Shown piece by piece: positions 11,013 to 26,780 of a stretch of DNA of 61,214 nt; position 1 is the stretch's first letter; the number at the start of each line of letters is the position of its first letter. This DNA comes from Pseudanabaena frigida (GTDB lineage Bacteria; Cyanobacteriota; Cyanobacteriia; Pseudanabaenales; Pseudanabaenaceae). The stretch spans positions 1 to 61,214 of the forward strand of contig QBML01000033.1 in the NCBI GenBank assembly GCA_003242085.1, given 5' to 3'. The notes beneath the pieces were generated by a model that was not told where the DNA came from, did no database searches, and saw nothing but the letters and a program-made list of their open reading frames with translations. The translations under genes and the position numbers were made by a program.

Positions 11013-11059
11013 GCTAGTACTTAAACAGGTGTAGATACGCTAATGAAATGTGACATACC

Positions 11060-11636: not shown

Positions 11637-11695
11637 CCAATTTAACACTTATTACAAGGCTTTTTTCAACTTACTGAAAGAAATAATTGTAAATT

Positions 11696-11880: not shown

Positions 11881-11951
11881 GTCAGGATAGAGATGGATTG
11901 GTCGGGAACATCTGAGTCAAACACCAGACCTTCCGCTACAATGTTCTGTTA

Positions 11952-12560
11952 TCAATCTTCCTTTGGGGCTAGCTCAAATTTTGCTAGCATCCTGTCAAAA
12001 ATATCAACTGGGAACTGATATTCATCTATCTCAATGAAGACCTTACTCTTTTCTTGTTTATCATACAAAACCGTAACAGAAGTCATATTACTCCCACAAT
12101 CACCCAAAAGATTACCTAAATACACTCTTTCTGTTCTAGTTTTGTTAACAAGAGGTGTAGCAAGAAAAAGGACGAATTTCTCAACAAATGACAATGATTG
12201 AGATTTCTCTTCAGCATTTTGCGTTTTAAAAAGATATTTTTTAGTTCGTATCTCTGACGCAAAATTCATGAGATTTTGATAAAGAATTTCGACCTGATTC
12301 TCCTCTACATCAATCCTTACTGCTGAAAAGAGAAATATATTAAGAACTTTCCCCTCAGCTCTACTTGATCCTGAAGCCATTGGAGATTCTAAGGCAGCTA
12401 GTAGTTTTTTATTCTTAGTCGATTTAAGATACTTTGATAGGTATTCCATCGTTTGTGACCTCTGCTCAGCAGCAGCTTCAACGCTTAAAACCACAAGGGA
12501 CATTGATGTACCATCAATGTCCCCAATTTCTACAATATAATTACAAAATTTCTCTTGCAT
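11952..12560 (-). CDS. Unknown cytosolic protein
   Basis: A 202-residue soluble protein that I do not recognise. It shows alternating strands and helices (KFCNYIVEIGDIDGTSMSLV; MTSVTVLYDKQEKSKVFIEI) with no signal peptide, membrane segment or catalytic motif. A low-complexity ASGSSRAEGK loop sits near residue 62. It is followed at its 3' end by family-B repeats and preceded by two membrane-protein genes in the same orientation. ATG at 12560. Confidence 0.6.
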   Translation of the reverse strand: MQEKFCNYIVEIGDIDGTSMSLVVLSVEAAAEQRSQTMEYLSKYLKSTKNKKLLAALESPMASGSSRAEGKVLNIFLFSAVRIDVEENQVEILYQNLMNFASEIRTKKYLFKTQNAEEKSQSLSFVEKFVLFLATPLVNKTRTERVYLGNLLGDCGSNMTSVTVLYDKQEKSKVFIEIDEYQFPVDIFDRMLAKFELAPKED

Positions 12561-12733
12561 TATGCTTCCTTCTATGTACGAACATTTAGTCAGAAACCTC
12601 TAAAAGTTAACTGCTGAACTTACCCGCTAATAGAGGTTTTGAATGATGAAAAAATCTTAGCATAGGTCGGGTGCAATGATTTTTTATAGGGCATAAAACT
12701 TCTTCCTAAATATTATAGAAAATCAAGCCATGA

Positions 12734-13585
12734 TTAAAGTCCAAGACTATACCTTAACGCCCTAACAACAACCTCATGACCAGAAGCATTCATCCCATAA
12801 GAATCCATGTAATTTGAAATTGGTTCTTTTTCTCCAGTTTTCATGATGAGAATAATGCGATCGGTATGTTCCTCATCACTTTTGTCATCTTCAATTTGAA
12901 TATCTACAATTTGATTTATATCGAATCTACTTATTTCCTTACCATCAAGTTCGCATACAAGTATTTTTTCATGTTTCTTGATAGAATACTTTCGGTAATT
13001 ACCCGACGTGTGACAGACTGCAAGTGTATCTTCAGAATTGTGAATTACCCACTCTCTATGTAGAAGTTGTATTGGCTGATCTGACAAAAAGTCTGAGATT
13101 ATGCGCCTTGATATAAGAAGTTTGATATCGCTATTGGATTTGCCTAACTCGATCTTGGTTCCTCTAAATCGACCATTTTTTCGTATCCAGATGACAAGCT
13201 CACTAATATTCTTTTGGCGCAATAGCTCAACTCCAGTTACTTCATTTAAGGGAAATTCTTCAGTGTTAGAACCAAATAAATTTCTTCGTTGTACGGATAG
13301 TTGTTGTCTTGCTTTATCAAAGGATAATGTTGAATCTATTGGCGAAGCCAATCCATATACGCCATTTACTAAAGCTAAAATACTCGCAATGTAACAACCT
13401 ATCGCTAAAGAATCTTTTGGAATTCCAGTGATTGAAGCTAGAAGACTTGGGACAGCTCCATGAAATGCAAGAATGGCAATTAGTATACCTGTAAATATTA
13501 GTGCTATTGATATTGCTAGCTTTTTATGATTATTTATCAGGATAGACAATCTTTTAGGACTTTCTTCGAGAACCTTATAGTCCAT
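12734..13585 (-). CDS. Membrane protein with PH-like domain (paralogue of next gene)
   Basis: A 283-residue protein. Two membrane segments at about residues 22-45 and 60-85 (LAISIALIFTGILIAILAFH; AIGCYIASILALVNGVYGLA) are followed by a cytosolic sheet-rich domain (LSFDKARQQLSVQRRNLFG, FPLNEVTGVELL, LVIWIRKNGRF) of the kind seen in bacterial PH-like proteins. A second similar block ends the protein (RYSIKKHEKILVCELDGKE). The neighbour at 13655 has the same plan, so they look like a paralogous pair. Function unknown. Confidence 0.65.
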   Translation of the reverse strand: MDYKVLEESPKRLSILINNHKKLAISIALIFTGILIAILAFHGAVPSLLASITGIPKDSLAIGCYIASILALVNGVYGLASPIDSTLSFDKARQQLSVQRRNLFGSNTEEFPLNEVTGVELLRQKNISELVIWIRKNGRFRGTKIELGKSNSDIKLLISRRIISDFLSDQPIQLLHREWVIHNSEDTLAVCHTSGNYRKYSIKKHEKILVCELDGKEISRFDINQIVDIQIEDDKSDEEHTDRIILIMKTGEKEPISNYMDSYGMNASGHEVVVRALRYSLGL

Positions 13586-13654
13586 CTCTTAATGATTCCT
13601 CTAATGATTTGTTATACATCTTTGCTTACAAAATCTCTTTCTATCTCTTGTTTC

Positions 13655-14236
13655 TTAATTCAACAAAAAACCTCTAATTAAATTAGTCATATTCTCTTGT
13701 GTTTTCTCATTGTCGCCAGGGTAAAGCCTTAATTTCTTACCTGTTATACTAACCACAATTGAACGCCAATATCTTGGTGGAGGATCGTCATTATTCTCAA
13801 TCAAAGGTTCTACAGATAGGATTTCATTTAAGCTATAGCAAGTAATTTTGTTGGGGCAGTATGGGAAGATAGCTGGGGTAGAACACTTTAAAGTTCTTAG
13901 ATTCTTATCAAATGTATATGTAGATTGTCGCCCCCCACCATAAATTCTGATCAGCAATATGCCCGTGAAAGGAAAAGCTGCAATCAAGATTCCAACTATG
14001 AAACATTCCCAGACATTACTAGAATTTATTAACATAGTAATTCCAAAAATTACTATAAAAGCAATTAAGGGTTGAATAATTAAATTTTTTGCACTGGGGA
14101 TAGTTCCCTCACTGTATCCATATTCGCCATTAAAAATAACTAGCTCAACCTCTGTATGTTTAAGTACTTTCATTCCTAGAGACATAGGGCTATGCGAACT
14201 AAATATGCAGTAAGATCGTACAACAAGTCTTGACAC
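13655..14236 (-). CDS. Membrane protein with PH-like domain (paralogue)
   Basis: Up to 193 residues. Two membrane segments (LIIQPLIAFIVIFGITMLIN; CFIVGILIAAFPFTGILLIR) precede a sheet-rich domain with TYTFDKNLRTLKC, CYSLNEILSVEPL and RSIVVSITGKKLRLYPG. The phrases FDK...L and SLNEI align with the neighbour at 12734. The start is uncertain: ATG at 14173 (MKVLKHTEVEL) matches the start of the paralogue best, with other in-frame ATGs at 14185 and a longer frame to 14236. Function unknown. Confidence 0.6.
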   Translation of the reverse strand: MSRLVVRSYCIFSSHSPMSLGMKVLKHTEVELVIFNGEYGYSEGTIPSAKNLIIQPLIAFIVIFGITMLINSSNVWECFIVGILIAAFPFTGILLIRIYGGGRQSTYTFDKNLRTLKCSTPAIFPYCPNKITCYSLNEILSVEPLIENNDDPPPRYWRSIVVSITGKKLRLYPGDNEKTQENMTNLIRGFLLN

Positions 14237-14353
14237 TTTTTGTAGCTTTCCTTGATAGATAATTAAGTCAAGTGCGATCGTCTCAATTCTAAAAGGTTTG
14301 ACGAGAGCGATTCCTTATGTATTTCTTGTCATGACGATAAAAGATTGAATTTG

Positions 14354-14929
14354 TTAAGAAGCTTTTGGATAGAGCCACTTAGCAAAAAGATTAGTAACTC
14401 TTGGCATGATAATGTAAGTCATCGCAAATACCATCAGCCCTGAAACCAGAAATGTCGCTAGAGTTGGTGGCAAGAAAGAGAGGTTCGGGATTACCAATCT
14501 ATTCATGAAATTTATCAAGATAAAGATAATTCCCCAAGTGAGAAGGAACATCTTATAGCGCGGCGGTGGTAATATCGCTTTATTAGTGGATAGAGTAAAC
14601 CAAGTTTCCAAGCCAGTGAGAACCTGAAACTTACCTTCATCTACAATCAAGCGATTGAGCTGGGCGAGATAACCTTTGCGAATTTCTGAACTTTCCCACA
14701 GCCGATAATTACTCAGGCGATCGAATTTGAATACAATCCGATACTGAAGATTCGATGTGTCATCTGGGCGAAAGACATTCACTCCCAGATGACCATCAAA
14801 CATCTCGGCGGCAGAAATCATTTCTGTTAAGATTCCCTCAAATTCCTGCTCGCAAGAAGGTTTAACATTGAGAGCAACATCAACGGTTACGGGAGTATCA
14901 TCTGATTCCATGCGATCGCTTTGATTCAT
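14354..14929 (-). CDS. ABM-domain monooxygenase-like protein with membrane anchor
   Basis: A 191-residue protein. Residues 12-110 form an antibiotic-biosynthesis-monooxygenase (ABM) ferredoxin-like domain (VDVALNVKPSCEQEFEGILT, FDGHLGVNVF, YRIVFKFDRLSNYRLWESS). Two membrane segments follow (MFLLTWGIIFILINFMNRLV; LATFLVSGLMVFAMTYIIMP). This ABM-plus-C-terminal-membrane arrangement occurs in a known group of uncharacterised bacterial proteins. The ABM domain faces the cytosol by inference. Substrate unknown. ATG at 14929. Confidence 0.85.
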   Translation of the reverse strand: MNQSDRMESDDTPVTVDVALNVKPSCEQEFEGILTEMISAAEMFDGHLGVNVFRPDDTSNLQYRIVFKFDRLSNYRLWESSEIRKGYLAQLNRLIVDEGKFQVLTGLETWFTLSTNKAILPPPRYKMFLLTWGIIFILINFMNRLVIPNLSFLPPTLATFLVSGLMVFAMTYIIMPRVTNLFAKWLYPKAS

Positions 14930-14977
14930 TTGTATTAGTTGATCGTTAGCTACTGATGTTACGGGGAAGTTTGTAAA

Positions 14978-15078
14978 GCCCTCACCCCTAGCCCCTCTCC
15001 CGCAGGAGAGGGGGACAAGAGAATATTATAGGTTTTGCTCCCCTTCTCCTGCGGGAGAAGGAGTTGGGGGATGAGGGT
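14978..15078. repeat. Cyanobacterial CTCCCGCAGGAGA palindromic repeat
   Basis: Two self-complementary arms (CCCTCTCCCGCAGGAGAGGG and CTTCTCCTGCGGGAGAAG) also pair with each other (CCCTCACCCCTAGCC with GTTGGGGGATGAGGG). Relatives are at 33126-33222 and 44418-44503. It sits between the ABM gene and the SMP-30-like gene. Confidence 0.65.
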
Positions 15079-15089
15079 TGTAGCAAGAT

Positions 15090-15974
15090 TTAAACCAATG
15101 GCAGTCCAGCAATGCCAACTTCAAGCCTTACCACCTTTCCCGATTCAACCCCAGTAGCAGGAGGGAAAGACATGCCGCCGTTGGTTGTGACATAGATGCT
15201 GCGATCGCCTTCAGATTTACCGAATGCTAAAGCCGTGCTACCTGCCATGCCTTGTTTTAGTTGAGCAATAGTAGTGACAGTGCCATCTTGATCGATCTTC
15301 ACCACACTATTAAAAACGTGAGTCGTACCGTAGAGATTCCCTTCAATATCAAAGGCAAAGTCGTCGATATTAACTCCAGTGAGAAAGATCTCTGGTTCTC
15401 CTGCCAAGCCATCGGCAAGAATAGGAATCTTCACAATCTGTTTCTTTTGAGTATTGGAAGCATAGAGAAAATTGTCGTAAATTTTTAAACCATTCACCGC
15501 AGGAGTAACTTCTTCAGACGAAGTACGCGCAAGATCGGGATGTTCTAGCCAAATGCTAACCGTTTTCGTTGGCACATTCAATTGCCAGATTGCACCACGA
15601 TAGGAATCAGCGATTAAGTAATTATCGCTATCTAATCGAGTCAATCCATTCAAAAATATTGCTTCGGGCAATTCCGTCAAAAGTTCGACCGTTCCATCGC
15701 TAGCAATACGCCATACTACAGAAGTTTCCTTTTCATCCCAACCTGACAGCAGCAGTTCTACATTTGGTGTCAATGCCAAGCCAGTTGCTTTACCTGCGAT
15801 CGTTGCGTGGGTTGCGACAACTCCATCAGCACTAATGCGAAAGACCTTACCTTCGTAATGATTGGTGATAAATAAAGTATTATCTGCATCGATAACAACG
15901 CTTTCTAAAAAGGAATTGACAGGAAATTCAGCGATCGTTTGGGCGGGGACTAGGTCAGTTAATGTTTCTATCAT
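15090..15974 (-). CDS. SMP-30/gluconolactonase-like beta-propeller protein
   Basis: A 294-residue cytosolic protein of six-bladed propeller type: repeated blades such as SFLESVVIDADNTLFITNHY, GLALTPNVELLLSG, NGLTRLDSDNYLIADSYRGA and FAFDIEGNLYGTTH. Metal-binding positions typical of SMP-30 (N and D in blade turns) are plausible, but enzyme activity is not assured; many members are lactonases or unknown. Just downstream of its start on the minus strand lies a truncated alpha/beta hydrolase relic, and an HxlR regulator is divergent. ATG at 15974. Confidence 0.8.
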   Translation of the reverse strand: MIETLTDLVPAQTIAEFPVNSFLESVVIDADNTLFITNHYEGKVFRISADGVVATHATIAGKATGLALTPNVELLLSGWDEKETSVVWRIASDGTVELLTELPEAIFLNGLTRLDSDNYLIADSYRGAIWQLNVPTKTVSIWLEHPDLARTSSEEVTPAVNGLKIYDNFLYASNTQKKQIVKIPILADGLAGEPEIFLTGVNIDDFAFDIEGNLYGTTHVFNSVVKIDQDGTVTTIAQLKQGMAGSTALAFGKSEGDRSIYVTTNGGMSFPPATGVESGKVVRLEVGIAGLPLV

Positions 15975-15986
15975 GATTTTTCACCT

Positions 15987-16175
15987 TTAGGATAATAGCA
16001 TCGCTGTTAATTTGTCAGGAGATGCCGCAAATGGAGAATGTCCTGTCTCAATTTCTAATACGCGATCGCAGAGTAGCTCAGTAAACATCTGTTTCTGTAA
16101 ACTTGGTGAGATCACGCGATCGTTTAAGGCGGTGATATAGGTGCAGCGATCGCGCATATAGGGTTGCTCATTTTT
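15987..16175 (-). pseudogene. Alpha/beta hydrolase C-terminal remnant
   Basis: The minus strand reads RCTYITALNDRVISPSLQKQ, then MFTELLCDRVLEIETGHSPF and AASPDKLTAMLLS before a TAA. GHSPF holds the catalytic histidine, and RCTYI...D is the typical last core of EstC-like alpha/beta hydrolases. An in-frame stop lies just upstream (near 16185), so the nucleophile part is gone. Its stop is 13 bases from the start of the SMP-30-like gene, so they were probably an operon. Confidence 0.75.
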
Positions 16176-16295
16176 TAATCGTTATTTTTTTCCATAATTA
16201 GGATATACATTATTCTTAATAAGCAATAACATCAAAGGTTATTAGTTACCAAATAGATACTAGTACGATTGTTTTTGAGTTTATATCTGAAAGTT

Positions 16296-16631
16296 ATGGC
16301 TACAAAAAAATATAGCTGTCCCGTAGAGTTCACGCTCGATCGCATTGGAGGTAAATGGAAGGCAGTAATCCTATGGTGGCTGAAAGGTGGTAGTAAGAGA
16401 TTTGGCGAGCTAATGCACTTGATGCCAGACATCAGCCGAAAAGTATTGACTTCGCAATTGCGAGAATTAGAAGCCGATGGACTGATCGAACGTGAAGTTT
16501 TTGCAGAATCGCCGCCGCGCGTAGAATATTCGTTATCGGATCATGGTGCAACTTTAAAACCGATTATGGAACTCATGTGCGAATGGGGAAAAGTAAACGG
16601 GAAAGAACATCAATTTGACTTTGGTTTATGA
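16296..16631 (+). CDS. HxlR-type winged-helix transcriptional regulator
   Basis: A 111-residue HxlR-family regulator (ATG at 16296, MATKKYSCPVEF). It contains the N-terminal CPVEFTLDRIGGKWKAVILW pattern and a winged helix (ISRKVLTSQLRELEADGLIE, PRVEYSLSDHGATL). The Cys in CPVE is the usual sensor residue in HxlR proteins reacting to electrophiles or oxidants. It diverges from the hydrolase relic and SMP-30-like gene, which are its likely targets. Confidence 0.9.
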   Translation: MATKKYSCPVEFTLDRIGGKWKAVILWWLKGGSKRFGELMHLMPDISRKVLTSQLRELEADGLIEREVFAESPPRVEYSLSDHGATLKPIMELMCEWGKVNGKEHQFDFGL

Positions 16632-16990
16632 GGCGATCTTTATTACTGTGAGCCATGATTTCTTGGTGATCGCATCAACAATTCATCTCCTGAAAGCGAT
16701 CGCTATTACTGTGAGTCGTGATTTCTAGGCGATCGCTTTAACGATATATTTTCTAAAGCGTTGCTGAAGGCGATGGCTACTACTATGAGCCGTGATTTTT
16801 AGGCGATCGCTTTAACGATATATTTTCTATAGGTTTGCTGAAGGCGATCGCTAGTGCTGTGAGTCGTGATTTTTAGGCGATCGCATTAACAATCTATCTT
16901 CTAAAGGCGATCGCTAGTGCTGTGAGTCGTGATTTTTAGGCGATCGCCTCAATTATCTATCTACTAAAGGTTTGTTGAGGGCGATCTCTG
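16632..16990. repeat. Tandem array of repeat family A (five units)
   Basis: Five head-to-tail units of about 63-85 bases. Consensus: GGCGATCGCTANTNCTGTGA, GTCGTGATTTNTAGGCGATC, GC, NNTNAACNATNTATNTNCTA, AAG. Units differ by a few substitutions, and some have an insert with GGTTTGCTGAA. Each unit has HIP1 near both ends. Single or double copies occur at 7144, 7908, 9530, 10948, 20131, 24990 and 26570. No gene lies in 16632-17069. Confidence 0.8.
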
Positions 16991-17069
16991 ATTATTGGAG
17001 TATCTCTGGGATTGAAAACCTCTTGATGATTCAATCAGAATATTTCAATGTAAATGTTGTACTAAAAAT

Positions 17070-17564
17070 ATGTTCTCATACCAAGTTCGAGATTTGACTG
17101 CTGAAGATGAATCGATAGTGTGGACGATGCTGATGTATGCAGCCCATGAAAGTTCGATTGAAGCTGTTCAAAAACAGCCTTATCTTTGCCGCTATGCAGA
17201 GGATTGGGGAAGAGAAGGCGATATGGGTTCTGTTGCATTTGCAGACAACAAACCAATTGGGGCAGTTTGGCTGCGGTTATGGTCGGGAAGCGATCGCGGC
17301 TTTGGTTATATTGATGCGTCTATTCCAGAACTAGCAATGGCTGTTTTACCAGAATATCGGGGTAAAGGAGTTGGTAGCAAATTGTTGAAGGCTATTTTAG
17401 AAAAAGCTCAAGGTTTATTTCCTGCGATATGTCTCAATGTTCGCGAGGATAATCCAGTCGTGAGATTATACGAACGGATAGGATTTGTTAGGGTTGAAGG
17501 CAGCAAAATTGTAAATCGTGTTGGTGGAGTCTCGTTTAATATGATGTATAGCAACCACAAATAG
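17070..17564 (+). CDS. GNAT-family N-acetyltransferase
   Basis: A 164-residue GNAT acetyltransferase. The acetyl-CoA-binding motif A is clear: MAVLPEYRGKGVGSKLLKAI (R-G-x-G-x-G/S), followed by motif B, NPVVRLYERIGFVRV. Preceding strands (GSVAFADNKPIGAVWLRLWS) complete the fold. Substrate unknown. ATG at 17070. A decayed hairpin of family C begins at its stop codon. Confidence 0.9.
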   Translation: MFSYQVRDLTAEDESIVWTMLMYAAHESSIEAVQKQPYLCRYAEDWGREGDMGSVAFADNKPIGAVWLRLWSGSDRGFGYIDASIPELAMAVLPEYRGKGVGSKLLKAILEKAQGLFPAICLNVREDNPVVRLYERIGFVRVEGSKIVNRVGGVSFNMMYSNHK

Positions 17565-17591
17565 AGGCAGCGCTTCGCGCCATCTCTATTT
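17559..17591 (+). terminator. Imperfect hairpin overlapping GNAT stop (family C relic)
   Basis: Arms AAATAGAGGCAGCGC and GCGCCATCTCTATTT around TTC, 12 of 15 pairs. It has the GCGC-TTC-GCGC head of the perfect hairpins found later in the window. Confidence 0.55.
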
Positions 17592-17633
17592 GCGATCTAA
17601 TTTGATAGCGATCGCTATCAAATTAGATCGCAA
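17590..17633. repeat. 44-bp perfect palindrome centred on HIP1
   Basis: TTGCGATCTAATTTGATAGC precedes GATC and the exact mirror complement follows. Every base pairs and the centre is GCGATCGC. It lies between the GNAT gene and ada. Confidence 0.8.
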
Positions 17634-17711
17634 GAATTAGATATTTACTTTCGAGTCTGGTGGCTTAGGATATCAAAGTATTGACAATGGTATTTAGTAA
17701 TATATTCAGCC

Positions 17712-18770
17712 ATGACGCAATTTACCACGATAGATCGAAGATGGGAGGCGGTTGTCGCAAACAATCCGCAAGCTGACGGAGCTTTCTTTTATGCAGTTAA
17801 AACCACGGGTATTTATTGCCGTCCGACTTGTAAATCTCGAATGCCAAAACCTTGTAACGTGAAGTTTTTCGCGACTATTACTGAGGCTGAAACCGCAGGC
17901 TTTCGCCCCTGTAAGCGATGTCAACCCAATAGCGAATCACCACAGGCGGAACGAGAACAACTAATTGCTAATATTTGCAAAACTATCGAAACATCTGAAG
18001 AACAGCTTTCTTTAAATGAGTTGGCTCAGATGGCTGGCTTAAGCCCATATCATTTTCAGCGTGTGTTCAAGCAGATTGTAGGAGTGACTCCTAAAGACTA
18101 TGCAAAGGGAGAACGGGCAAAACGTCTGCGCGATCGCTTGCAGCAAGACAGCTCGATTACCACCACACTATATGCAGCAGGTTATGAATCCAGTAGTGGC
18201 TTTTATGCGGAAGCTAACAACATATTAGGTATGAAACCCAACGAATACAAAAGAGGTGCAATGAACCAGCAAATTCGATTTGCAGTTGAGATGACGAACT
18301 TAGGATGGGTAATGGTTGCTGGAACTGAAATAGGGATTTGCGCGATCGCCTTAGGCGACAATCCAGATGAATTAGCGAGCGAAATTCATAGGCGGTTTCC
18401 ACAAGCAGAGTTTTGTGATACCGATCTGACATTTCAGCAATGGGTTGCCGATGTAGTCTCAATGATCGAAATGCCCAAGCGCAGCTTGAATTTGCCGCTT
18501 GATATTCAGGGTACTGCTTTTCAACAACAGGTATGGCAATTATTACGGACTATTCCTGTGGGAAGTACCTTAAGCTATCAACAAGTTGCCACTCAAATTG
18601 GGAAACCCAAAGCGGTTCGAGCAGTTGCTTCAGCATGTGCGGCAAATAAACTAGCGATCGCAATTCCCTGTCATCGAGTTATAGGTAGTAATGGTTCTCT
18701 CAGTGGCTATCGATGGGGAGTGGAACGCAAACAAGCTCTATTGGAACTAGAAAAGTTAGAGAATTTATGA
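17712..18770 (+). CDS. ada: Ada: methyl phosphotriester/O6-methylguanine methyltransferase and regulator
   Basis: A 352-residue bifunctional Ada protein. Residues 10-75 are the zinc domain with four cysteines (C36, C40, C67, C70; GIYCRPTC...FRPCKRCQ); by homology the first accepts methyl groups from phosphotriesters. An AraC-type helix-turn-helix follows (LSLNELAQMAGLSPYHFQRV; FKQIVGVTPKDY). The C-terminal methyltransferase has the active-site IPCHRVIGSNGSLSGYRWG. Methylation of the N-terminal domain should make it an activator of its own operon. It heads a translationally coupled operon with a 2OG oxygenase and AlkA. Confidence 0.95.
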   Translation: MTQFTTIDRRWEAVVANNPQADGAFFYAVKTTGIYCRPTCKSRMPKPCNVKFFATITEAETAGFRPCKRCQPNSESPQAEREQLIANICKTIETSEEQLSLNELAQMAGLSPYHFQRVFKQIVGVTPKDYAKGERAKRLRDRLQQDSSITTTLYAAGYESSSGFYAEANNILGMKPNEYKRGAMNQQIRFAVEMTNLGWVMVAGTEIGICAIALGDNPDELASEIHRRFPQAEFCDTDLTFQQWVADVVSMIEMPKRSLNLPLDIQGTAFQQQVWQLLRTIPVGSTLSYQQVATQIGKPKAVRAVASACAANKLAIAIPCHRVIGSNGSLSGYRWGVERKQALLELEKLENL

Positions 18771-19495
18771 AAAATAGTACCGCATCTATTCAAGCGATAG
18801 CCGATCGCGTGGAAGCATTACCTTGGCAAAGAATCTATTCTGATCTGGAACATCATGGTTTTGCGATAACTGATCGACTTTTTGATGTTGATGAATGTCA
18901 AAAATTGATTGGGATGTATACCGATAGCAGCTTATTTCGCAAGCAAGTGATCATGCAAGATCACAGTTATGGAAGGGGAGAATATCAATACTTTGCCTAT
19001 CCACTGCCTGAGATCGTTTATTCTTTGAGGCAATCAATGTATTCGCAATTAGTGGCGATCGCCAATCAATGGCATACATCCCTGAAGCGATCGATATTTC
19101 CCGCAACCTTATCCGAATTTTCCAAATCCTGTCATATGGGAGGACAGACGAAACCCACTGCCCTTTTGTTGAAATATGAAGCTGAAGACTATAACTGCTT
19201 GCATCAAGACCTTTATGGTGAACTAACTTTTCCACTGCAAGTAGCGATTCTACTGAGCGATCCAGATCGAGACTTTGCGGGTGGTGAGTTCGTTTTAACG
19301 GAACAAAGGGTACGCAAGCAATCTAAAGTAGAAGTTGTTAGATTGCAACAAGGTCAAGCAGTAATTTTTGCTGTCAATCATAAGCCTGTGCCAAGCAAGC
19401 GTGGTATTTCCCGCGTTAACATAAAGCACGGAGTTAGTCGCATTCTCTCAGGACAAAGATTTTGTCTGGGTGTAATCTTTCACGATGCAAAATGA
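18767..19495 (+). CDS. 2OG-Fe(II) oxygenase of the alkylation-repair operon
   Basis: A 242-residue Fe(II)/2-oxoglutarate dioxygenase. The iron-binding triad is visible as HQDLYG (His and Asp) and the distal HGVSRILSG; the downstream Arg fits the 2OG-binding role. It resembles the prolyl-4-hydroxylase-like/DUF2086 group rather than classical AlkB, yet its place between ada and alkA points to repair of alkylation damage. ATG at 18767 overlaps the ada stop (ATGA), and its own stop overlaps the alkA start in the same manner. Confidence 0.85.
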   Translation: MKNSTASIQAIADRVEALPWQRIYSDLEHHGFAITDRLFDVDECQKLIGMYTDSSLFRKQVIMQDHSYGRGEYQYFAYPLPEIVYSLRQSMYSQLVAIANQWHTSLKRSIFPATLSEFSKSCHMGGQTKPTALLLKYEAEDYNCLHQDLYGELTFPLQVAILLSDPDRDFAGGEFVLTEQRVRKQSKVEVVRLQQGQAVIFAVNHKPVPSKRGISRVNIKHGVSRILSGQRFCLGVIFHDAK

Positions 19496-20115
19496 TGATG
19501 GACTTAATAAAACCAGAGCGACATTTCCGCAATGCGATCGCCCAACTTTATCGACTAGATCGAGATTTTCAGCAAATCGAAACTGTCGCTGGGGATTTAG
19601 AAATAAGAAGTTACGAACTCACCTTTGCTGCTCTGGTTCGGATTATTATCGGACAACAGCTTTCTACTAAAGCTGCTAATTCCATCTTTTTTAGACTCAG
19701 TGAGTCGATGGAGATTTCGCCAACAAATATTGTGGCTTGCTCTGAAGAGGAATTACGAAACTTGGGGTTAAGCCGTTCTAAGGTTGCTTGCTGTCAAAGT
19801 TTGGCAATTGCAATTTTGGAAGAACAAATCAACCTAGAATCTTTTGATCGTCTCTCAGATGAAGCGATCGCTTCCCAACTCCTCCAAATCAAAGGTATTG
19901 GCAAATGGACGGTAGAGATATTTTTACTATTTTGTCTGCATCGGCTAGATGTCTTTCCCGCAAACGATTTGGCACTTCAAGTGGCTTATCAAAAATTAAA
20001 GAACCTTAGCGATCGCCCAACTGCCAAGGAACTTATTACTTTGATTGCACCTCTAGCGCCTTACCGTGGCGTTGTTGCCCATTTACTCTGGCATTACTAC
20101 CGTTATCTCCATTGA
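19492..20115 (+). CDS. alkA: DNA-3-methyladenine glycosylase II-like (AlkA)
   Basis: A 207-residue compact AlkA-type glycosylase without the N-terminal TBP-like domain of E. coli AlkA. The helix-hairpin-helix reads LLQIKGIGKWTVEIFLLFCL, followed by the catalytic Asp in VFPANDLALQ. It removes 3-methyladenine and related bases. Start chosen as the first of three tandem ATG codons at 19492, overlapping the upstream TGA. It is the third gene of the ada operon. Confidence 0.9.
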   Translation: MMMDLIKPERHFRNAIAQLYRLDRDFQQIETVAGDLEIRSYELTFAALVRIIIGQQLSTKAANSIFFRLSESMEISPTNIVACSEEELRNLGLSRSKVACCQSLAIAILEEQINLESFDRLSDEAIASQLLQIKGIGKWTVEIFLLFCLHRLDVFPANDLALQVAYQKLKNLSDRPTAKELITLIAPLAPYRGVVAHLLWHYYRYLH

Positions 20116-20130
20116 TCTATTTTTAGTGGG

Positions 20131-20335
20131 CGATCGCATCAACAATCTATCTCCTAAAAGCGATCGCTATGACTGTGGGTTGGAATTAATAGGCGATCGC
20201 TTCTAAATTATTTGTCTTTGCGATCGCCAATAGCTTCCCGAAACTAAACAACAAAGTTAAACATTTTTGCTTGCTTAAACTTGGGTAAAAATAGTCAACC
20301 TTAAAGGTCTTACCGATTTTCGACGTTAGATGTTT
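20131..20335. repeat. Repeat family A copy followed by family B copy
   Basis: Family A (20131-20212) is followed by family B (about 20213-20335): TTTGCGATCGCCAATAGCTT, CCGAAACTAAACAAC, then CATTTTTGCTTGCTTAAACT, AAAAATAGTCAACCTTAAAG. It ends beside the stop of the SnoaL-like gene at 20338. Confidence 0.65.
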
Positions 20336-20337
20336 TC

Positions 20338-20721
20338 TCAATACATTGGATTGCCATTCTTCGTTTCATCTGGCACTTCCTGTATCGAGTCCCAATGCTC
20401 GACAATCTTTCCATTTTCGTCGAAGCGAAAGAAATCCATCGTCACGTAATCTTTGTCACCAGGCCATTTTTGATGCGTATGAAGCGCAACCAAATCACCT
20501 TCCGCTACTGCTCGCACAAATTCGATATCTTTTCCAGGGTAGTCTTTCGCCATCTCGTTGAAGTACTCAATGAAAGCCGTCTTTCCGTCACCGACTAACG
20601 GATTGTGCTGTATATATTCAGCCCCTACATACAGGTTTACAGCTTTGGCTGGATCGCCCAGATAAGCTGTGCGATAAAACTCAATTGCGTTCTTTTTGTT
20701 CGCTTCTATATCGTGGTTCAT
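20338..20721 (-). CDS. SnoaL-like polyketide-cyclase-family protein
   Basis: A 127-residue NTF2-fold protein of the SnoaL type: KKNAIEFYRTAYLGDPAKAV, then VGAEYIQHNPLVGDGKTAFI, VALHTHQKWP and MDFFRFDENGKIVEHWDSIQ. The YIQHNP and EHWD phrases are typical of this group, which includes aldol-cyclase-like enzymes and many unknowns. It is a lone gene with family-B repeat at its 3' end. Confidence 0.9.
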   Translation of the reverse strand: MNHDIEANKKNAIEFYRTAYLGDPAKAVNLYVGAEYIQHNPLVGDGKTAFIEYFNEMAKDYPGKDIEFVRAVAEGDLVALHTHQKWPGDKDYVTMDFFRFDENGKIVEHWDSIQEVPDETKNGNPMY

Positions 20722-21062
20722 GTCTGTTCACCCTTAAGATCAGTTAGTCATCATACACCTAGCTACTTAATTGAGCGGCAACTGATCGCCTTTCAAATCA
20801 GCGCAAAATCTCTAATATTATCTGCTCGGATGATATGTTATGCCCCGATCGCTTAATTATTATTTATCCATGCGATCGCCAATAACTTCTCTGAACTCAT
20901 CAAAGAAACATTTTGGGCTGCCCAATCTCGGCTAAAAACTGACTAACTTAACGGATGTATCGTTTTCCGTTGAGCATCAGCCAGCATTTTTCTTATCACC
21001 TCTAAAATCTTTCATAAGTCCGCTCCAACATAGTTATTAGCCTGCAATCCATATACAACAGT
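20722..21062. repeat. Spacer with repeat family B copy
   Basis: The spacer of about 340 bases carries a family-B copy at 20870-20980 (GCGATCGCCAATAACTTCTC ... CTAAAAACTGACTAACTTAA). The copy ends with a hairpin (ACTTAACGGA and TCCGTTGAGC, 10-base loop, 20950-20979). It lies 3' of the minus-strand gene at 21063. No gene seen. Confidence 0.6.
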
Positions 21063-21524
21063 TCAAATTGGTTTCCTTCGTTGCGATTTATACCAGTTGT
21101 GAGCTTTATTAACTTGCTCCGCCCAGAACCTTAAGACAGTATCTTCCTTTGTGTCAGGCAATGCATTTAGCCACTCCATCCAATCAAAGAAAATCTTACT
21201 TGGCTTATATTCGGCACGATTTACTACAAGTGCATTTGCCATAAAGCCATGCTCACAATAGCTACGGCATGAAATTTGTCCTAAAAAATCACCAATAATA
21301 CGTCTATCTAATCCTGTCCAGCCTGAGGTATTCATGTAATATGCACCTCCTTGACCAACATTAGGTAAATGAAATTCAATACCTTTGACCAAGTCAGAGT
21401 ATGTTATTAGGCTTAAATTTTTACCAGTTTCCGCGATTCGTTTTTCTAGTTCTGCATACGCAATAGGATCTTGTGGAGCGTAAGTCCATCGACATTCAGC
21501 CAATTTTTTAGCAACTTCATCCAA
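21063..21524 (-). CDS. Unknown protein, possibly 5'-truncated
   Basis: A 153-residue protein that I do not recognise. Aromatic-rich, with GGAYYMNTSGWTGLDRRIIG and SCRSYCEHGFMANALVVNRA as the most conserved-looking parts. There is no ATG near the start; the frame begins at TTG (21524) just after an in-frame stop, so either TTG is used or the 5' end is lost. Family-B repeat lies 3'. Confidence 0.5.
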   Translation of the reverse strand: MDEVAKKLAECRWTYAPQDPIAYAELEKRIAETGKNLSLITYSDLVKGIEFHLPNVGQGGAYYMNTSGWTGLDRRIIGDFLGQISCRSYCEHGFMANALVVNRAEYKPSKIFFDWMEWLNALPDTKEDTVLRFWAEQVNKAHNWYKSQRRKPI

Positions 21525-21822
21525 CTTTTTGCATCCTCACAATTTAGTATCTTGCAGATTGAGCGATAGTCCTGATTACAAAATAAATATTCCATAACTC
21601 GTTAGATAAAGCAACCAAAAAGCACAATAACAAGATTTCTGCGGAATAGCTTACTTGAACAGAATTTTATCTAGCAAAATATAACTTAGCAACTTGTGTT
21701 AGTGGAACTTAACCCACAAATAATTAGCATTAAGTTGAATCTTGGTAGCTTAACATTGCATTAACGTCCCTACAAGATCGTTGATCTCACTAGAGGTAAA
21801 GTTTTGCGGTATGCGATCGCCA

Positions 21823-21885
21823 TTAATGACCAGTTTCAATATTTGGAACGAGGTTGCCATCTTCCATATAGACAATGCGATCGCC
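21823..21885 (-). pseudogene. devA: devA remnant (last 20 codons of ABC ATPase)
   Basis: After the devC stop the minus strand reads GDRIVYMEDGNLVPNIETGH and TAA. DRIVYMEDG is the C-terminal signature of DevA-type ABC ATPases, where it follows the H-loop. Everything before it (Walker A, signature, Walker B) is absent. The join to the devC stop falls exactly on GGCGATCGC, so a deletion between two HIP1 sites is the simplest explanation. Confidence 0.8.
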
Positions 21886-23058
21886 TTAGAAAATATCAGC
21901 AGGATCGGCGGTTTGGATTTTTCGCATAGCGATCGCTCCCGAAACAGTACACATAACTACGGTCATCACAAAGACAGAAGTGGCGCGTTCTAGAGTCATT
22001 TTTATCGGTAACATCGTGGCGGCGTAGGTAACTTGATAGAGTCCGATAGAAAGTAAGAGACTAGGCAGAAACCCCAGACAAGCCAACAAAAGAGCTTCTT
22101 GGAAAAGGATACTCAAAAGATAGCGATCGCTATAACCCATTGCCTTGAGAGTGGCATATTCCGCAAGGTGATCGGAGACATCGGAATAGAGAATCTGATA
22201 GACAATCACGATACCGACAATAAATCCCATAGCCACACCCAACCCAAAAATGAAGCCGATACTGGTTCCCGTTTCCCAATAGCTTTTTTCGACACCTGCC
22301 CATTCTTCGGTAGTCAGCACGCGCAGATCTCCAGATAGTAGGTTAGCGAGTTCCCTTTTGACTTGCTGCACGTCGGTTCCTTCTTTTAGATGTATTAATC
22401 CCATCTCAATGCGATCGCTGCGTCGGTCTGGAAATAAACGTAAAAAAGTCGCATCACTAGTGATGATATTGCCATCCGCCGCAAAGGAAGAACCAACCTC
22501 AAACAGTCCGCTTACTTGCACTAATTTATTGTTGAGTTGAGCTTCTAATTCTCCATTTTGCATAAACATATTCGCCACATCGCCATATTCGGGACGACCA
22601 GCACGATCAAAGAGAACGCGATCGAGTTGTTGAATCTGCGGGATTTGTTGGGCGGGATCGGGTAGGTTGACACTAGGATTACCCGCATCAACTCCCCAAA
22701 TGAGAATCGCTCGATTTTGACGAGTTTCGGGGTTACGCCATTGACCCGCAACGGAAATATAAAGTGGAGAAACGGATTTAACTTGAGGATGGGCGAGGGT
22801 TTGGTAAAGGCGATCGCGTTGAAAACTAGGTGTGGAGATGAGGGTCTGGAACTGAGTACTAGCGATCGCTAAATCTGCTTGAATTAGTTCTCGATAGGGC
22901 TTCATCGCCGAATCATAGAGCGCTCCTTCAAATCCCAACTGCACGAACATCAAGATATCGGCAAAGGCAATACCTGATAGCGCCACGACAAAGCGAACTT
23001 TATTGTGAGTCAGTTGCAGCCAAGCAAGGGGAATTTTTTTGAATAGTTTATGCAGCAT
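21886..23058 (-). CDS. devC: DevC-type ABC exporter permease
   Basis: A 390-residue permease of the DevC/MacB type: N-terminal MLHKLFKKIPLAWLQLTHNK then a first membrane helix (FVVALSGIAFADILMFVQLG), a large periplasmic domain, and three C-terminal helices (GFIFGLGVAMGFIVGIVIVY; ALLLACLGFLPSLLLSIGLY; SVFVMTVVMCTVSGAIAMRK). Start ATG at 23058, with GGAGGA just upstream, rather than the longer frame. It works with DevB and an ATPase; the adjacent devA is deleted, so an ATPase from elsewhere would be needed. Confidence 0.9.
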   Translation of the reverse strand: MLHKLFKKIPLAWLQLTHNKVRFVVALSGIAFADILMFVQLGFEGALYDSAMKPYRELIQADLAIASTQFQTLISTPSFQRDRLYQTLAHPQVKSVSPLYISVAGQWRNPETRQNRAILIWGVDAGNPSVNLPDPAQQIPQIQQLDRVLFDRAGRPEYGDVANMFMQNGELEAQLNNKLVQVSGLFEVGSSFAADGNIITSDATFLRLFPDRRSDRIEMGLIHLKEGTDVQQVKRELANLLSGDLRVLTTEEWAGVEKSYWETGTSIGFIFGLGVAMGFIVGIVIVYQILYSDVSDHLAEYATLKAMGYSDRYLLSILFQEALLLACLGFLPSLLLSIGLYQVTYAATMLPIKMTLERATSVFVMTVVMCTVSGAIAMRKIQTADPADIF

Positions 23059-23092
23059 AGATCCTCCTGATATTAAACTTGAGGCGATCGCC

Positions 23093-24274
23093 TTAATTTG
23101 TAGATGAAAGTTGAATCTTGCCTTGAACTTGTAAATTTGTAAAAGCAGCAACGCGGCGGCTATCCTCTGGACTTAAACGCACCTTGACTTCAATGACGCG
23201 GCGATCAAGATTCTCTCCTGCTTGGTTTGTTGCTTGGCGCTGACGCTCTACTTGCAAGCCAACTTGCGAAACAATCCCTTTCACTTCGCCTTGAAATGCT
23301 TGTCCTGTAATCGTCGCAGATTGTCCGACTTTGACGCGATCGATCTCCGTTTGATAGACTTCCAGCACCGCCACCATGCGATCGGTTGCACCTAATTCGA
23401 CGATGCCATTATTGCTAACCTTTTCCCCTAATCGCGTGCGAATTTTGAGGATTTGTCCATCCATAGGAGCGCGAATATAGGCTTGAGCAAGGTTCGTCTC
23501 CGCCCGTTTGAGAGCGGCGATGGCGCTGTCTACTTCTCTAGCTTTGGTGGCAATATCGACAGGGCGCACTTCGGCAATGCGATCGCGAGTACTAGTTGCT
23601 TCAAGAACTTGGGCTTGGAGGGTATTGGCAAGGCGATCGCGATTGCTCAGAGCTTCCTGTAACTGAGCGCGAGTTGTTTCCGCAGTCAGACGTTTAGTAT
23701 CTAAAACCGAAGCAGAAATTGCACCTTGGGCATAAAGTTGTTGAAAACGAGCCAACTCTGTCTCCGCAGTGCGAACTTCCGATTGCCATCGGGAAATCGT
23801 CGCAGACTGAGCTGCATCGCCACCGCGCAAATCTGCTTGCAATCGCACGATGGTTGCCTCTTGCGCTTGGATTTCCGATTGTTTTGCGCCAGCCCTAACC
23901 CTTGCGAATTCTGCTTGGGCAATCTCCACCTGTGCCTTGGCTTGTACAACTTCATCGGCAAAGCGATCGCTAGCATCTAGTACGGCAATAATTTGCCCTG
24001 CTTTCACCCGATCGCCGACTTGGACGCGCAACTCTTTTAAGCGATCGCCTTCTAGCGCAACAGGAGCCGCTAAACGCATGACTTCTCCTTCTGGTTCCAA
24101 TCGACCTAGTGCCGTTACGGGCAGAGGTACACTAGAGATCGCGGGAGTATTATTTGTAGTATTTGGCTTACTAGAAGAGAGAACGCTATAAATAGAAATT
24201 CCTGTAGCTAGAGTCGCAAGGAAAATGCCCCCAAGCCAAAGATGGCGGGAGTTAAAGAAAGATTGAGATGTCAT
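23093..24274 (-). CDS. devB: DevB-type HlyD-family membrane fusion protein
   Basis: A 393-residue periplasmic adaptor: N-terminal membrane anchor (LGGIFLATLATGISIYSVLS), lipoyl half-motifs (LGRLEPEGEVMRLAAPV; LRVQVGDRVKAGQIIAVLD), a long coiled coil (residues about 115-255) and the second lipoyl half (LAQAYIRAPMDGQILKIRTR), then a beta-barrel (VAVLEVYQTEIDRVKVGQSA). In heterocystous strains DevBCA exports glycolipids; here the cargo is unknown. It is in an operon with the tetR gene upstream and devC downstream. Confidence 0.92.
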   Translation of the reverse strand: MTSQSFFNSRHLWLGGIFLATLATGISIYSVLSSSKPNTTNNTPAISSVPLPVTALGRLEPEGEVMRLAAPVALEGDRLKELRVQVGDRVKAGQIIAVLDASDRFADEVVQAKAQVEIAQAEFARVRAGAKQSEIQAQEATIVRLQADLRGGDAAQSATISRWQSEVRTAETELARFQQLYAQGAISASVLDTKRLTAETTRAQLQEALSNRDRLANTLQAQVLEATSTRDRIAEVRPVDIATKAREVDSAIAALKRAETNLAQAYIRAPMDGQILKIRTRLGEKVSNNGIVELGATDRMVAVLEVYQTEIDRVKVGQSATITGQAFQGEVKGIVSQVGLQVERQRQATNQAGENLDRRVIEVKVRLSPEDSRRVAAFTNLQVQGKIQLSSTN

Positions 24275-24310
24275 ATTTTACTAATCCATTTCAAAGAAAT
24301 TTAGCAAGCT

Positions 24311-24883
24311 TCAGTCATCGCTAGTCATGCGAATTAGTTCGGCAATTACCTGCGATCGCTCCTCGTCAGAAATGCAGTTAAGCCCTAATAACTGATTCCA
24401 AGAAAGTCCATCCGCAGCTAAGAGAATTACCCCTGCCTTGAGCGGAGCAATCCCACAATTGCAGGCTTGTTGATGCCACCGAGTAGCAGCTTCTTGGTAT
24501 GGTTGGAGGAGTTTACTATCCTTCGCGACAGCCGCTAATAATCCAGATTGAATTGCGGCATTCTGGCGATCGAATATATCTCCAGCCCTGATGTAAGCCC
24601 GTAACCAAGCACCTTTGACGGTGAGATCGCCTTCGCGAGTGAGTTCTATCTCTAATAATTGCTCGAACTCGGCGATCAGGTTTGCGACCATGCTCGTCAG
24701 TAGAGATTCTTTATTAGGGAAATGATAGAGCAATCCGCCTTTGCTTACGCCTGCTTCTTTGGCAACTGCATCAAGGGTCAAAGCGTCAGCCCCAAAGCGC
24801 AAAACGACTTCACCTGCCGCATTGAGCAGTGATTCTCGCGTCGCCGATCGCGATCGCTTGCCAACTTCTAAAGCCTCTGCCAT
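24311..24883 (-). CDS. TetR/AcrR-family repressor of the devBC operon
   Basis: A 190-residue TetR-family protein. The N-terminal helix-turn-helix (RESLLNAAGEVVLRFGADAL; TLDAVAKEAGVSKGGLLYHF; PNKESLL) is followed by a ligand-binding domain of the TetR_C type. Its own promoter contains a matching palindromic operator, so it should be autoregulated and control devBC, which starts 36 bases downstream. The effector is unknown, perhaps the exported compound. Confidence 0.92.
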   Translation of the reverse strand: MAEALEVGKRSRSATRESLLNAAGEVVLRFGADALTLDAVAKEAGVSKGGLLYHFPNKESLLTSMVANLIAEFEQLLEIELTREGDLTVKGAWLRAYIRAGDIFDRQNAAIQSGLLAAVAKDSKLLQPYQEAATRWHQQACNCGIAPLKAGVILLAADGLSWNQLLGLNCISDEERSQVIAELIRMTSDD

Positions 24884-24936
24884 AACCTTTTGCCCGAATA
24901 CTAAAAAATTAAGACAATGGACTTGCCTTGAAAGTA

Positions 24937-24965
24937 ACTATACCGTCCAGACGGTTTAGTGTCAA
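24937..24965 (-). promoter_or_regulatory. Sigma-70 promoter with embedded TetR operator
   Basis: On the minus strand TTGACA (24960-24965) and TATAGT (24937-24942) are separated by exactly 17 bases. The spacer and -10 edge carry the palindrome ACCGTC-CA-GACGGT (24942-24955), a typical TetR-family operator. Binding would block RNA polymerase directly. The TetR start codon lies 54 bases downstream of the -10 box. Confidence 0.85.
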
Positions 24966-24989
24966 CTAGTGGATTAAATTTTTTGATTA

Positions 24990-25290
24990 TGCCGATCGCT
25001 ATTACTGTGAGCCGTGATTTCTAGGCGATCGCATCAACAATCTATCTTCTAAAGCTGAATGCTATTATCGTGAGTCGTGATTTCTAGGCGATCGCATCAA
25101 CAATCTATCTCCTCAAGGCGATCGCTATTACTATGAGTCGTGATTGATAGGCGATCGCTTAATAATTATTTGTCTCTGTGATCGCCAATAACTTCTCTAA
25201 ACCAACATAATCAACCATTTTTGATGGACGAATCTTGGCTAGAGATAGACAACCTTAAAGGAGCGATAGCTTGTTTGGCAAAAACTATGA
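24990..25290. repeat. Three family-A units and one family-B copy
   Basis: Family A units start near 24993, 25055 and 25118 (e.g. CGATCGCTATTACTGTGAGC), and family B at about 25176-25285 (GATCGCCAATAACTTCTCTA ... CATTTTTGATGGACG ... GATAGACAACCTTAAAGG). The spacer from 24966 to 25498 otherwise has no gene. Confidence 0.7.
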
Positions 25291-25498
25291 AGTAGGTTTT
25301 GTCATTTGAGGATTATTAATTCGCCAATTCTAAGGATTGTCTTTTGAATCAATGGTGTTAGTGTGGTTCAAGCTATGAGATAAAGATTAAGCAACCAAGC
25401 TACTCTAAAATGGAGCTTTTGATCTAACAACAAATTCCATAAATTTTAAAATGGGGAGATAAAACATCCTCACAGTAGCACTCTTGAGAAATAATGTT

Positions 25499-26532
25499 AT
25501 GGTTAAAACACGACGGCTTCAAAATGAAAGTGCTGGATTTATTAACGATGTTTCAAACATCATAGCTGCGGAAGCATGGAAAAACCCCTCATTAATTCCA
25601 GATTTATCAAAGGATAAAACAATATTTATCTTCTCTGACTATAGTCGTGTCCAAGGAGAATACAAGACTTACAGTTTTTTGGTTGTAGGACGTTCTGGTA
25701 CCGATTATTTCAATGGTGCTAGGAAAATTCTTAGAGAGGATTTTAATCTTAAGAATCGTCGTATGTCATATAAAGGTCTTAACGACAAAATCAAACTCAA
25801 AGCATTACCAGCGTTTTTGTCTTGTGCTGGGGCAATGGATGGATTACTGATTACATTTGCAGTTGATACTCAAATAAGATATATGTTTGCCGAGCAGTTT
25901 ATGGATGTATGGCCAGAACTTTCTGATTTAAAAAAAGTACATTAGAGGATATGTTGAGAGTAGTACATTTTGGAGCACAAGCCATAATGACTGCTTTTTC
26001 TAGTGGTCAAAACATTGTCTGGTTTACAGATAGTGATGCGATAGTTGCAAATGAGAAACATGAACAGCTTTTCGGTAAATTGGTAGAAACAACAATTAGA
26101 CATATGTTTATGCCGCAAGAAGATATCAATCAAATCGTATTTGGACTTTCAGAAATAGATGATGGATCACTTGAAATAGAAGATTTTGTCTCAATTCCTG
26201 ACCTAGTAGCAGGAGCATTGTGTGAGACACTTGATCGGCTCAGCCAATCTGATCTTAAGGTCACTTCAAAAATAATATTGAACATGCCAAAAGTACAATC
26301 AAAAACTAATATTATTTGTGAATGGATTGGTAAAACTATTTGTCCTCTAAAGAAATTTGGAATAGTTTTTGATAAATTTGGATCTCATCAGTGGGATTTT
26401 CGACCAACTTTTTTCTCTATCAAAAACTTAAATGTCACACCTTGTGAAATAAATTGCAATGCACAAAATTTGGCAGAATATATATCTGATCCAATTCATT
26501 TTGATGTTATAAACCAAGATAAGACTGAATAA
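25499..26532 (+). pseudogene. Unknown protein split by a -1 frameshift at A7
   Basis: Two adjoining frames form one protein of about 345 residues. The first part (from ATG 25499, MVKTRRLQNESAG) ends ELSDLKKVH at 25945. The second continues without an upstream stop when the ribosome slips back one base on the run TTAAAAAAAGT (25938-25948), giving LKKSTLEDMLRVVHFG. The 0-frame codons AAA AAA preceded by A make the heptamer A-AAA-AAA, an efficient slippery sequence. Acidic motifs FIFSDYS and VWFTDSDAIV recall DUF3800/RNase-H-like proteins, but this is speculative. It may be a simple mutation, a sequencing error or programmed frameshifting. Confidence 0.6.
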
Positions 26533-26567
26533 GCTGATCAATTGCCTATCTGCTAAAGAGTTTGCTG

Positions 26568-26780
26568 AAGGCGATCGCTAGAACTGTGAGTCTTAAGTTT
26601 TGGGCGATCGCACCAACAATCTATCTCCAAAAGCCGATCTCTAGTACTGTAAGTCGTGATTTCTAGGTGATCGCCTCAATTATCTATCTATTAAAGGAGT
26701 TGCTACAGGTGATAGCTTTTACGGTGAGTCGTTATACGCGATCGCATCAACAATCCATCTTCTCAAGGCGATCGCTATAT
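26568..26780. repeat. Repeat family A, three diverged units
   Basis: Units start near 26570, 26634 and 26705 (e.g. GGCGATCGCTAGAACTGTGA). A final HIP1 at 26767-26775 directly abuts the nucleotidyltransferase-like remnant. Confidence 0.65.

What the first reader, a model, noticed from the sequence alone, without database searches (positions are those of the whole stretch)
21811..21890. devA deleted at an exact HIP1 junction
The devC stop codon is followed by GGCGATCGC and then, with no gap, the last 20 codons of a DevA-type ATPase (GDRIVYMEDG...). In family members this DRIVYMEDG stretch lies about 200 residues into DevA. The GDR codons are themselves spelled by GGCGATCGC. So the simplest history is recombination between a HIP1 site after devC and the HIP1 site in the devA 3' end, cleanly removing the rest. 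This is a concrete case of HIP1 acting as a deletion hotspot, and it leaves tetR-devB-devC without its ATPase.
Basis: partly seen in the sequence, partly recalled or inferred. Interest (0 to 1): 0.65.

Follow-up and report, generated by a model that had tools for sequence, protein, structure and literature searches.

The report
Exporter operon stripped at HIP1 sites
In this Pseudanabaena genome a three-part pump has lost the gene for its motor protein (and at least one neighbouring gene), and both scars sit exactly on a short palindrome that cyanobacteria carry in great numbers; the palindrome was already linked to deletions, so this is a well-documented natural case rather than a new mechanism.

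Summary
On the minus strand the devC stop is followed by G, HIP1 and the last 20 codons of a DevA ATPase, then a second HIP1. No orthologous devA remains; 10 of 11 relatives carrying this operon keep one. The history is richer than proposed: six of 11 relatives read tetR-devB-GNAT-(other)-devC-SfLAP-devA, and the window has a second scar of the same design (devB stop, G, HIP1, last GNAT codons). It stands at that devA site only in truncated tails (window, G003, G012, G018); in the last three it adjoins a dispersed HIP1 array and may come from it. So the right breakpoint is a CGATCGC; the left partner is unknown. Genome-wide, HIP1 at ends of homology is weakly enriched (12 of 216 against 6.8 expected); in array-rich islands it is strong, mostly because of the arrays. 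HIP1-linked deletion has been in print since 1993. DevB and DevC show little decay and may use a paralogous ATPase.

The parts
24311..24883 (-). tetR, regulator at the head of the operon
   Evidence: Pfam TetR_N and TetR_C_28 over cut-off; found with devB in 11 relatives
23093..24274 (-). devB, membrane fusion protein
   Evidence: TIGR02971 320 bits, cut-off 129; intact, mean pairwise dN/dS 0.075
23084..23091 (-). HIP1 at the devB/devC scar (devB stop TAA-G-HIP1)
   Evidence: no HIP1 in the 130 nt after the devB stop in 11 of 11 relatives
23073..23090 (-). last codons (RSPQV, stop) of a deleted GNAT acetyltransferase gene
   Evidence: about 38 nt from the HIP1 on match G001 without a mismatch (read by eye); a full GNAT gene lies between devB and devC in relatives (Pfam on the G016 copy); one copy of this stretch in the genome
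21886..23058 (-). devC, permease
   Evidence: TIGR01185 482 bits, cut-off 290; intact
21877..21884 (-). HIP1 at the devC/devA scar
21823..21885 (-). devA remnant: last 20 codons and stop
   Evidence: own-genome hit to DevA residues 211-239
21813..21820 (-). HIP1 downstream of the devA stop, present behind 9 of 10 native devA copies; the sequence beyond it differs between most genomes
24984..25190 (+). dispersed HIP1 array (two modules alternating between HIP1 sites) upstream of the operon

Best explanation
A tetR-devB-(GNAT)-devC-(SfLAP or other)-devA exporter operon in a variable, HIP1-array-rich island has suffered two deletions in this lineage. Each left the upstream gene intact up to its stop codon and joined it to a CGATCGC-centred site near the 3' end of the deleted gene: HIP1 in the GNAT gene, GCCGATCGC in devA. 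I think both were short-homology recombinations guided by CGATCGC/HIP1, the left partner being a HIP1 that had come to lie behind devB and devC (probably from a dispersed HIP1 array) and was consumed. Shown: the loss, the two junctions, the right-hand breakpoints, the same cut in other genomes next to arrays. Inferred: the left partner and the recombination route. Effect: an exporter with fusion protein and permease but no ATPase of its own; it is either recently dead or borrows one of two DevA paralogues in the genome.
For: Junctions and relatives' sequences. 10 of 11 operon-bearing relatives have a DevA at 91-100% identity to the G016 query, G003 none better than 62% (E up to 1e-60); own genome only paralogues at 73% and 61%. 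HIP1 stands at the devA site in 4 of 24 places seen, exactly the four truncated tails; the 20 others lack it. In G012, G018 and G003 the tail is fused to an array module ending in HIP1. Rough chance that two unrelated right breakpoints fall within 3 nt of a CGATCG edge, from about 5 CGATCG per kb in relatives: of order 3e-4 (my estimate). In the islands 17 of 57 clustered ends of homology lie at a shared HIP1 against 3.3 expected, 13 of 57 against 2.9 with a stricter window.
Against: No relative shows a HIP1 or an array right behind devB or devC, so the left partner is unseen. The G before HIP1 at both scars is in neither parent as seen in relatives. Without ends in arrays the island enrichment shrinks to 6 of 36 against 2.1 (p 0.016), or 4 of 36 against 1.8 (p 0.11) with the stricter window. 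Genome-wide it is 12 of 216 against 6.8 (p 0.043), several of the 12 in these same islands. G017 lacks GNAT and lost SfLAP at joints without HIP1; the joint in G003's broken devC and in G011's internally deleted devA copy also lack one.
Confidence: 0.55

Rival explanations
1. Exact HIP1 x HIP1 recombination between a HIP1 behind devC and a HIP1 in the 3' end of an intact devA.
For: The product is a clean HIP1 junction; HIP1-dense genome.
Against: Neither parental HIP1 is seen: 0 of 10 intact devA and 0 of 9 devC ends in the genus; 0 of 62 and 0 of 72 in a wider set. A true HIP1 at -234 in devA was bypassed.
Confidence: 0.15
2. The right parent was not intact devA but an older orphan tail already headed by HIP1 (array-HIP1-tail, as in G003, G012, G018); HIP1 x HIP1 exchange with that copy removed devA and whatever lay between.
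For: Such tails exist in three genomes, in G012 and G018 beside an intact operon.
Against: Over 51 nt the window tail is nearest to native copies (3 differences to G010, 4 to G012 and G016; all ten native copies 3-9) and has 6 differences to each orphan tail, a weak signal. No orphan tail was matched in G016 or G014, the relatives most alike in tetR-devB.
Confidence: 0.12
3. The deletions broke at unrelated places (stop codon joined to GCCGATCGC; stop codon joined to TGCGATCGC), and single substitutions (C to G; T to G) then made or extended HIP1 at the joints.
For: One substitution suffices at each joint. That HIP1 propagates by nucleotide substitution is in the title of Robinson 1997 (a reference in PMC6331805; paper not read). 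G is a common base outside HIP1 (30% in the window).
Against: Needs both right breakpoints to lie next to CGATCGC by chance; the same devA cut recurs in other genomes.
Confidence: 0.13
4. Assembly artefact closing a gap.
For: Draft genome of 67 contigs.
Against: Both scars lie inside one 61-kb contig; the sequence shared at the joints (7-12 nt) is far shorter than usual assembly words (recalled); no orthologous devA elsewhere in an assembly rated 99.99% complete.
Confidence: 0.03

Closest known systems
[quoted passage not shown] seen only as a reference title and a passage in PMC6331805)
   Same: A deletion whose border involves GCGATCGC in a cyanobacterium; HIP1 proposed there to promote rearrangements
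   Different: There a cadmium-tolerant line; here a natural loss with no HIP1 at the parental devA or devC sites of relatives, and a second scar of the same design in the operon
HIP1 in site-specific or illegitimate recombination (review passages in PMC4390886, citing Akiyama 1998 and Robinson 1997, neither read)
   Same: HIP1 as a place where DNA is joined
   Different: The review says no evidence links HIP1 to homologous recombination; here the association lies mainly with dispersed HIP1 arrays
DevBCA exporter (TIGR02971, TIGR01185, TIGR02982)
   Same: DevB and DevC over cut-off
   Different: DevA missing apart from 20 codons
HgdB-HgdC of Anabaena PCC 7120 (PMC6161253, passages read)
   Same: DevB- and DevC-like proteins without a neighbouring ATPase gene; its authors suggest an ATPase encoded elsewhere
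   Different: The passages read describe no devA scar; here the ATPase gene was demonstrably lost

Membership tests
DevBCA-type tripartite exporter operon | DevB-family membrane fusion protein | tested here: met
   320 bits against 129
DevBCA-type tripartite exporter operon | DevC permease | tested here: met
   482 bits against 290
DevBCA-type tripartite exporter operon | DevA ATPase in the operon | tested here: not met
   20-codon tail only; no orthologue found in the genome
HIP1-mediated deletion (smtB type) | GCGATCGC exactly at the junction | tested here: met
   Two junctions
HIP1-mediated deletion (smtB type) | HIP1 at both parental positions | tested here: not met
   Right side: not at devA (0 of 10), yes at the GNAT end (6 of 7 relatives shown). 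Left side: 0 of 9 for devC, 0 of 11 for devB. Judged from relatives, not from the true parent
HIP1-mediated deletion (smtB type) | HIP1 enriched at breakpoints in general | tested here: inconclusive
   12 of 216 against 6.8; islands 17 of 57 against 3.3, but 6 of 36 against 2.1 without array ends
Integron-type cassette array (considered for the HIP1 arrays) | Repeats in one orientation at gene-sized spacing | tested here: met
   71 of 71 neighbouring arrays at most 10 kb apart on the same strand, median gap 1.49 kb (from the printed part)
Integron-type cassette array (considered for the HIP1 arrays) | Integron integrase beside the array | tested here: not met
   TIGR02249 over cut-off at 16 places in 13 of 26 genus genomes, in this genome only a remnant. 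No exact module core within the 12 of those 16 places fetched, nor at the remnant
Integron-type cassette array (considered for the HIP1 arrays) | attC R and L boxes and fold | not tested
   Only single-strand folds of five stretches were computed; HIP1 is self-complementary, so folding is expected anyway
ATPase-less DevBC pair of the HgdBC kind | Works with an ATPase encoded elsewhere | not testable with these tools
   Two DevA paralogues present, 73% and 61% identical to the lost type

The most novel reading that the evidence does not exclude
The dispersed, co-oriented HIP1 arrays of Pseudanabaena (25-nt and 22-nt modules alternating between HIP1 sites) are recombination sites of a cassette-like system: cargo such as the dev operon is inserted, trimmed and lost between them. 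The devA and GNAT scars would then be by-products of that system rather than of HIP1 as such.
Probability: 0.15. Interest if true: 0.7.

Novelty: new member of a known kind. Interest (0 to 1): 0.4.

Why it matters
It gives a natural, sequence-resolved example of gene loss at HIP1 with intact relatives for comparison, and it corrects the simple reading: the joint carries HIP1 although neither parent position does in relatives. It points to array-rich islands, not single HIP1 sites, as the place to test whether HIP1 guides rearrangement. For the exporter family it is a loss of the motor subunit with the other two parts still constrained, a chance to test ATPase sharing among DevBCA paralogues.

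Tried and rejected
Orphan DevA elsewhere in the genome: none orthologous. Decay of devB/devC: mean pairwise dN/dS of the window copy is 0.075 for devB (range of 11 copies 0.072-0.099) and 0.055 for devC (nine others 0.034-0.049), so devC is the highest but still strongly constrained (G003 left out). At columns invariant in the other equal-length copies the window DevC has 7 private residues, 4 of them in residues 3-9, and DevB 2 (G003 and G010 left out; for tetR no other copy had equal length, so its zero means nothing). N-terminal change by conversion from the C2 paralogue: its DevC N-terminus differs. The 12-mer TAAGGCGATCGC as a special sequence: TAAG precedes 44 of 5552 HIP1 positions counted on both strands of 1.63 Mb, the two scars among them. 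Synteny-based indel test: too little collinear DNA, 15 indels, 1 or 2 with HIP1 at the joint. Control 8-mers: of 15, those not overlapping HIP1 gave 0 hits, while several overlapping HIP1 (for example GATCGCTA, 4 against 0.5) rose with it. Rfam on 7.0-27.5 kb: 8 matches at E up to 1, none over its gathering score. HIP1 arrays as attC sites of the resident integrons: no module beside the integrases looked at. Limits: the module pattern asks for exact cores, so degenerate copies would be missed; the array mask was made. Mistakes made: and the devC query were out of frame (start taken as 23066 instead of 23058); their devC translations and identities are not used.

Full report
What is there. On the minus strand the window carries tetR (24883-24311), devB (24274-23093) and devC (23058-21886). 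After the devC stop come G, GCGATCGC and the last 20 codons of a DevA ATPase ending at 21823, then TG and another HIP1. DevB and DevC are full family members (TIGR02971 320 bits against 129; TIGR01185 482 against 290). The window is contig C26 of a 67-contig draft. Seven relatives could be named by matching contig lengths with a public collection: six Pseudanabaena and Phormidium tenue FACHB-1050.

devA is really gone. A pattern around the tail, up to 3 mismatches, finds in the own genome only the remnant and one paralogue. A protein search with the G016 DevA finds paralogues at 73% (C2) and 61% (C14), more distant ATPases and the remnant. Eleven relatives with tetR-devB of this operon were found; 10 have a DevA at 91-100% identity (100% being the query's own genome), G003 none better than 62%, and its devC is broken.

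More than devA is gone. In six of the 11 relatives (G001, G008, G011, G012, G016, G018) the order is tetR-devB-GNAT-(other genes in some)-devC-SfLAP-devA, G001 across a contig break (Pfam names from the G016 copies). G014 and G004 have other sequence between devC and devA. G017 has neither GNAT nor SfLAP, but its devA starts with the first residues of the SfLAP gene, so SfLAP was lost there, at a joint without HIP1. From the devC stop to the devA site is 670 nt in G017, 974 in G014 and 1383-1396 in three others, so the size of the window's deletion depends on which form was ancestral. The window also lacks the GNAT gene, and that scar has the same design: devB stop, G, HIP1, then the last GNAT codons and the spacer before devC, about 38 nt identical to G001.

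The parent sites. At the devA site 10 of 10 intact orthologues read GCC or GCT GATCGC (Ala-Asp-Arg), one or two bases off HIP1. After the devC stop, 9 of 9 relatives have no HIP1 at once; the nearest is 43-56 nt on, inside the SfLAP gene, in six of them. After the devB stop 11 of 11 have none within 130 nt. The GNAT end does carry HIP1 in 6 of 7 relatives shown. In a wider cyanobacterial set, 80 loci including some of the same genomes, 0 of the 72 with a recognised devC end have HIP1 within 12 nt and 0 of the 62 with a recognised devA site have HIP1 there. Nine of 10 orthologues have a true HIP1 234 nt before the devA stop, and it was not used.

The same cut elsewhere. Of 25 pattern matches in 26 genus genomes, 24 were seen in context (one row repeated its neighbour). 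HIP1 stands at the devA site in four: the window, G003, G012 and G018, and these four are the truncated tails. The 20 others, intact copies, paralogues and one internally deleted copy in G011, lack it. In G012, G018 and G003 the tail is fused to a module of a dispersed HIP1 array (degenerate in G003), so there the HIP1 can have come from the array, and the seven bases CGATCGC are what both sides share. G012 and G018 have the same flanks, so probably one event, and keep an intact operon 2-4 kb away. This is why I favour CGATCGC-guided joining over a HIP1 x HIP1 exchange, with the left partner in the window unknown.

Is HIP1 a breakpoint hotspot? Ends of homology among 1.63 Mb from four genomes carry a shared HIP1 in the last 12 columns in 12 of 216 cases, against 6.8 expected from interior match runs (p 0.043); several of the 12 lie in the dev islands. 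In the islands around the dev locus it is 17 of 57 clustered ends against 3.3 expected (13 of 57 against 2.9 with an 8-column window), but after leaving out ends in arrays 6 of 36 against 2.1 (p 0.016), or 4 of 36 against 1.8 (p 0.11). The association is thus mostly with arrays. Native devA is followed by HIP1 in 9 of 10 relatives, and the sequence past that HIP1 differs between most genomes.

The arrays. They alternate a 25-nt and a 22-nt module between HIP1 sites. A pattern for one module plus HIP1, up to 3 mismatches, is found in 22 of 26 genus genomes and 1 of the other 12 family members searched, the reversed control pattern in none. They are co-oriented: 71 of 71 neighbouring pairs within 10 kb in the printed, truncated list. 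Integron integrases over the NCBIfam cut-off are present in 13 of 26 genus genomes and none of 14 controls; the own genome has only fragments. No exact module core lies in the 12 of 16 such places fetched or at the own remnant, so I do not file the arrays as attC sites. Cyanobacterial integron attC sites as such are in print (one passage of PMC8352920).

What the remaining genes do. devB shows no sign of relaxed selection and devC at most a little. In Anabaena DevBCA with HgdD (TolC) exports heterocyst glycolipids, and a DevB/DevC-like pair without its own ATPase gene, HgdBC, is described, for which the authors suggest an ATPase from elsewhere (PMC6161253, passages). The window's DevBC could likewise use a paralogue, or the loss may be recent. 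The data do not decide.

Prior art. HIP1 was first found within smtB and proposed to promote rearrangements, in a paper whose title names a deletion (PMC6331805, passage and reference titles). A review records evidence for site-specific and low-efficiency illegitimate recombination at HIP1 and says none links it to homologous recombination (PMC4390886, passages). Searches pairing HIP1 with deletion, smtB, small dispersed repeats, Pseudanabaena, mobile repeated elements and illegitimate recombination showed no account of this locus or of these arrays in the titles and abstract starts listed; subscription papers are mostly not held. So this is a new member of a known kind.

Noticed in passing
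window 7146-26778 (copies near 7146, 7873, 9533, 10948, 16634, 20129, 24984, 26565) and many loci of the genus: Dispersed HIP1 arrays of alternating 25-nt and 22-nt modules, on one strand within a region and about a gene apart; one module plus HIP1 found in 22 of 26 genus genomes.
   Followed up: partly
G000:C11:80732-81160 (L296) and 13 genus genomes (for example L283-L295): Integron integrases (TIGR02249) over cut-off in 13 of 26 Pseudanabaena genomes; this genome keeps only a shortened remnant.
   Followed up: partly
L050 (G003:C13:20629) and L049 (G003:C5): G003 has lost devA too, keeps an orphan tail on another contig, and its devC runs into unrelated sequence after about 278 codons without HIP1.
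   Followed up: yes
L070 (G011:C33:143218): A second, internally deleted devA copy downstream of the intact one, joined without HIP1.
   Followed up: no
window 37833-38357 and 44447 to about 45000: Two stretches encoding nearly the same protein end, apparently a partial duplication; I take it for a beta-phosphoglucomutase-like protein, from recall and no search.
   Followed up: no
window 21063-21524: A 153-aa protein downstream of the remnant without any Pfam or NCBIfam hit at E 0.01.
   Followed up: no
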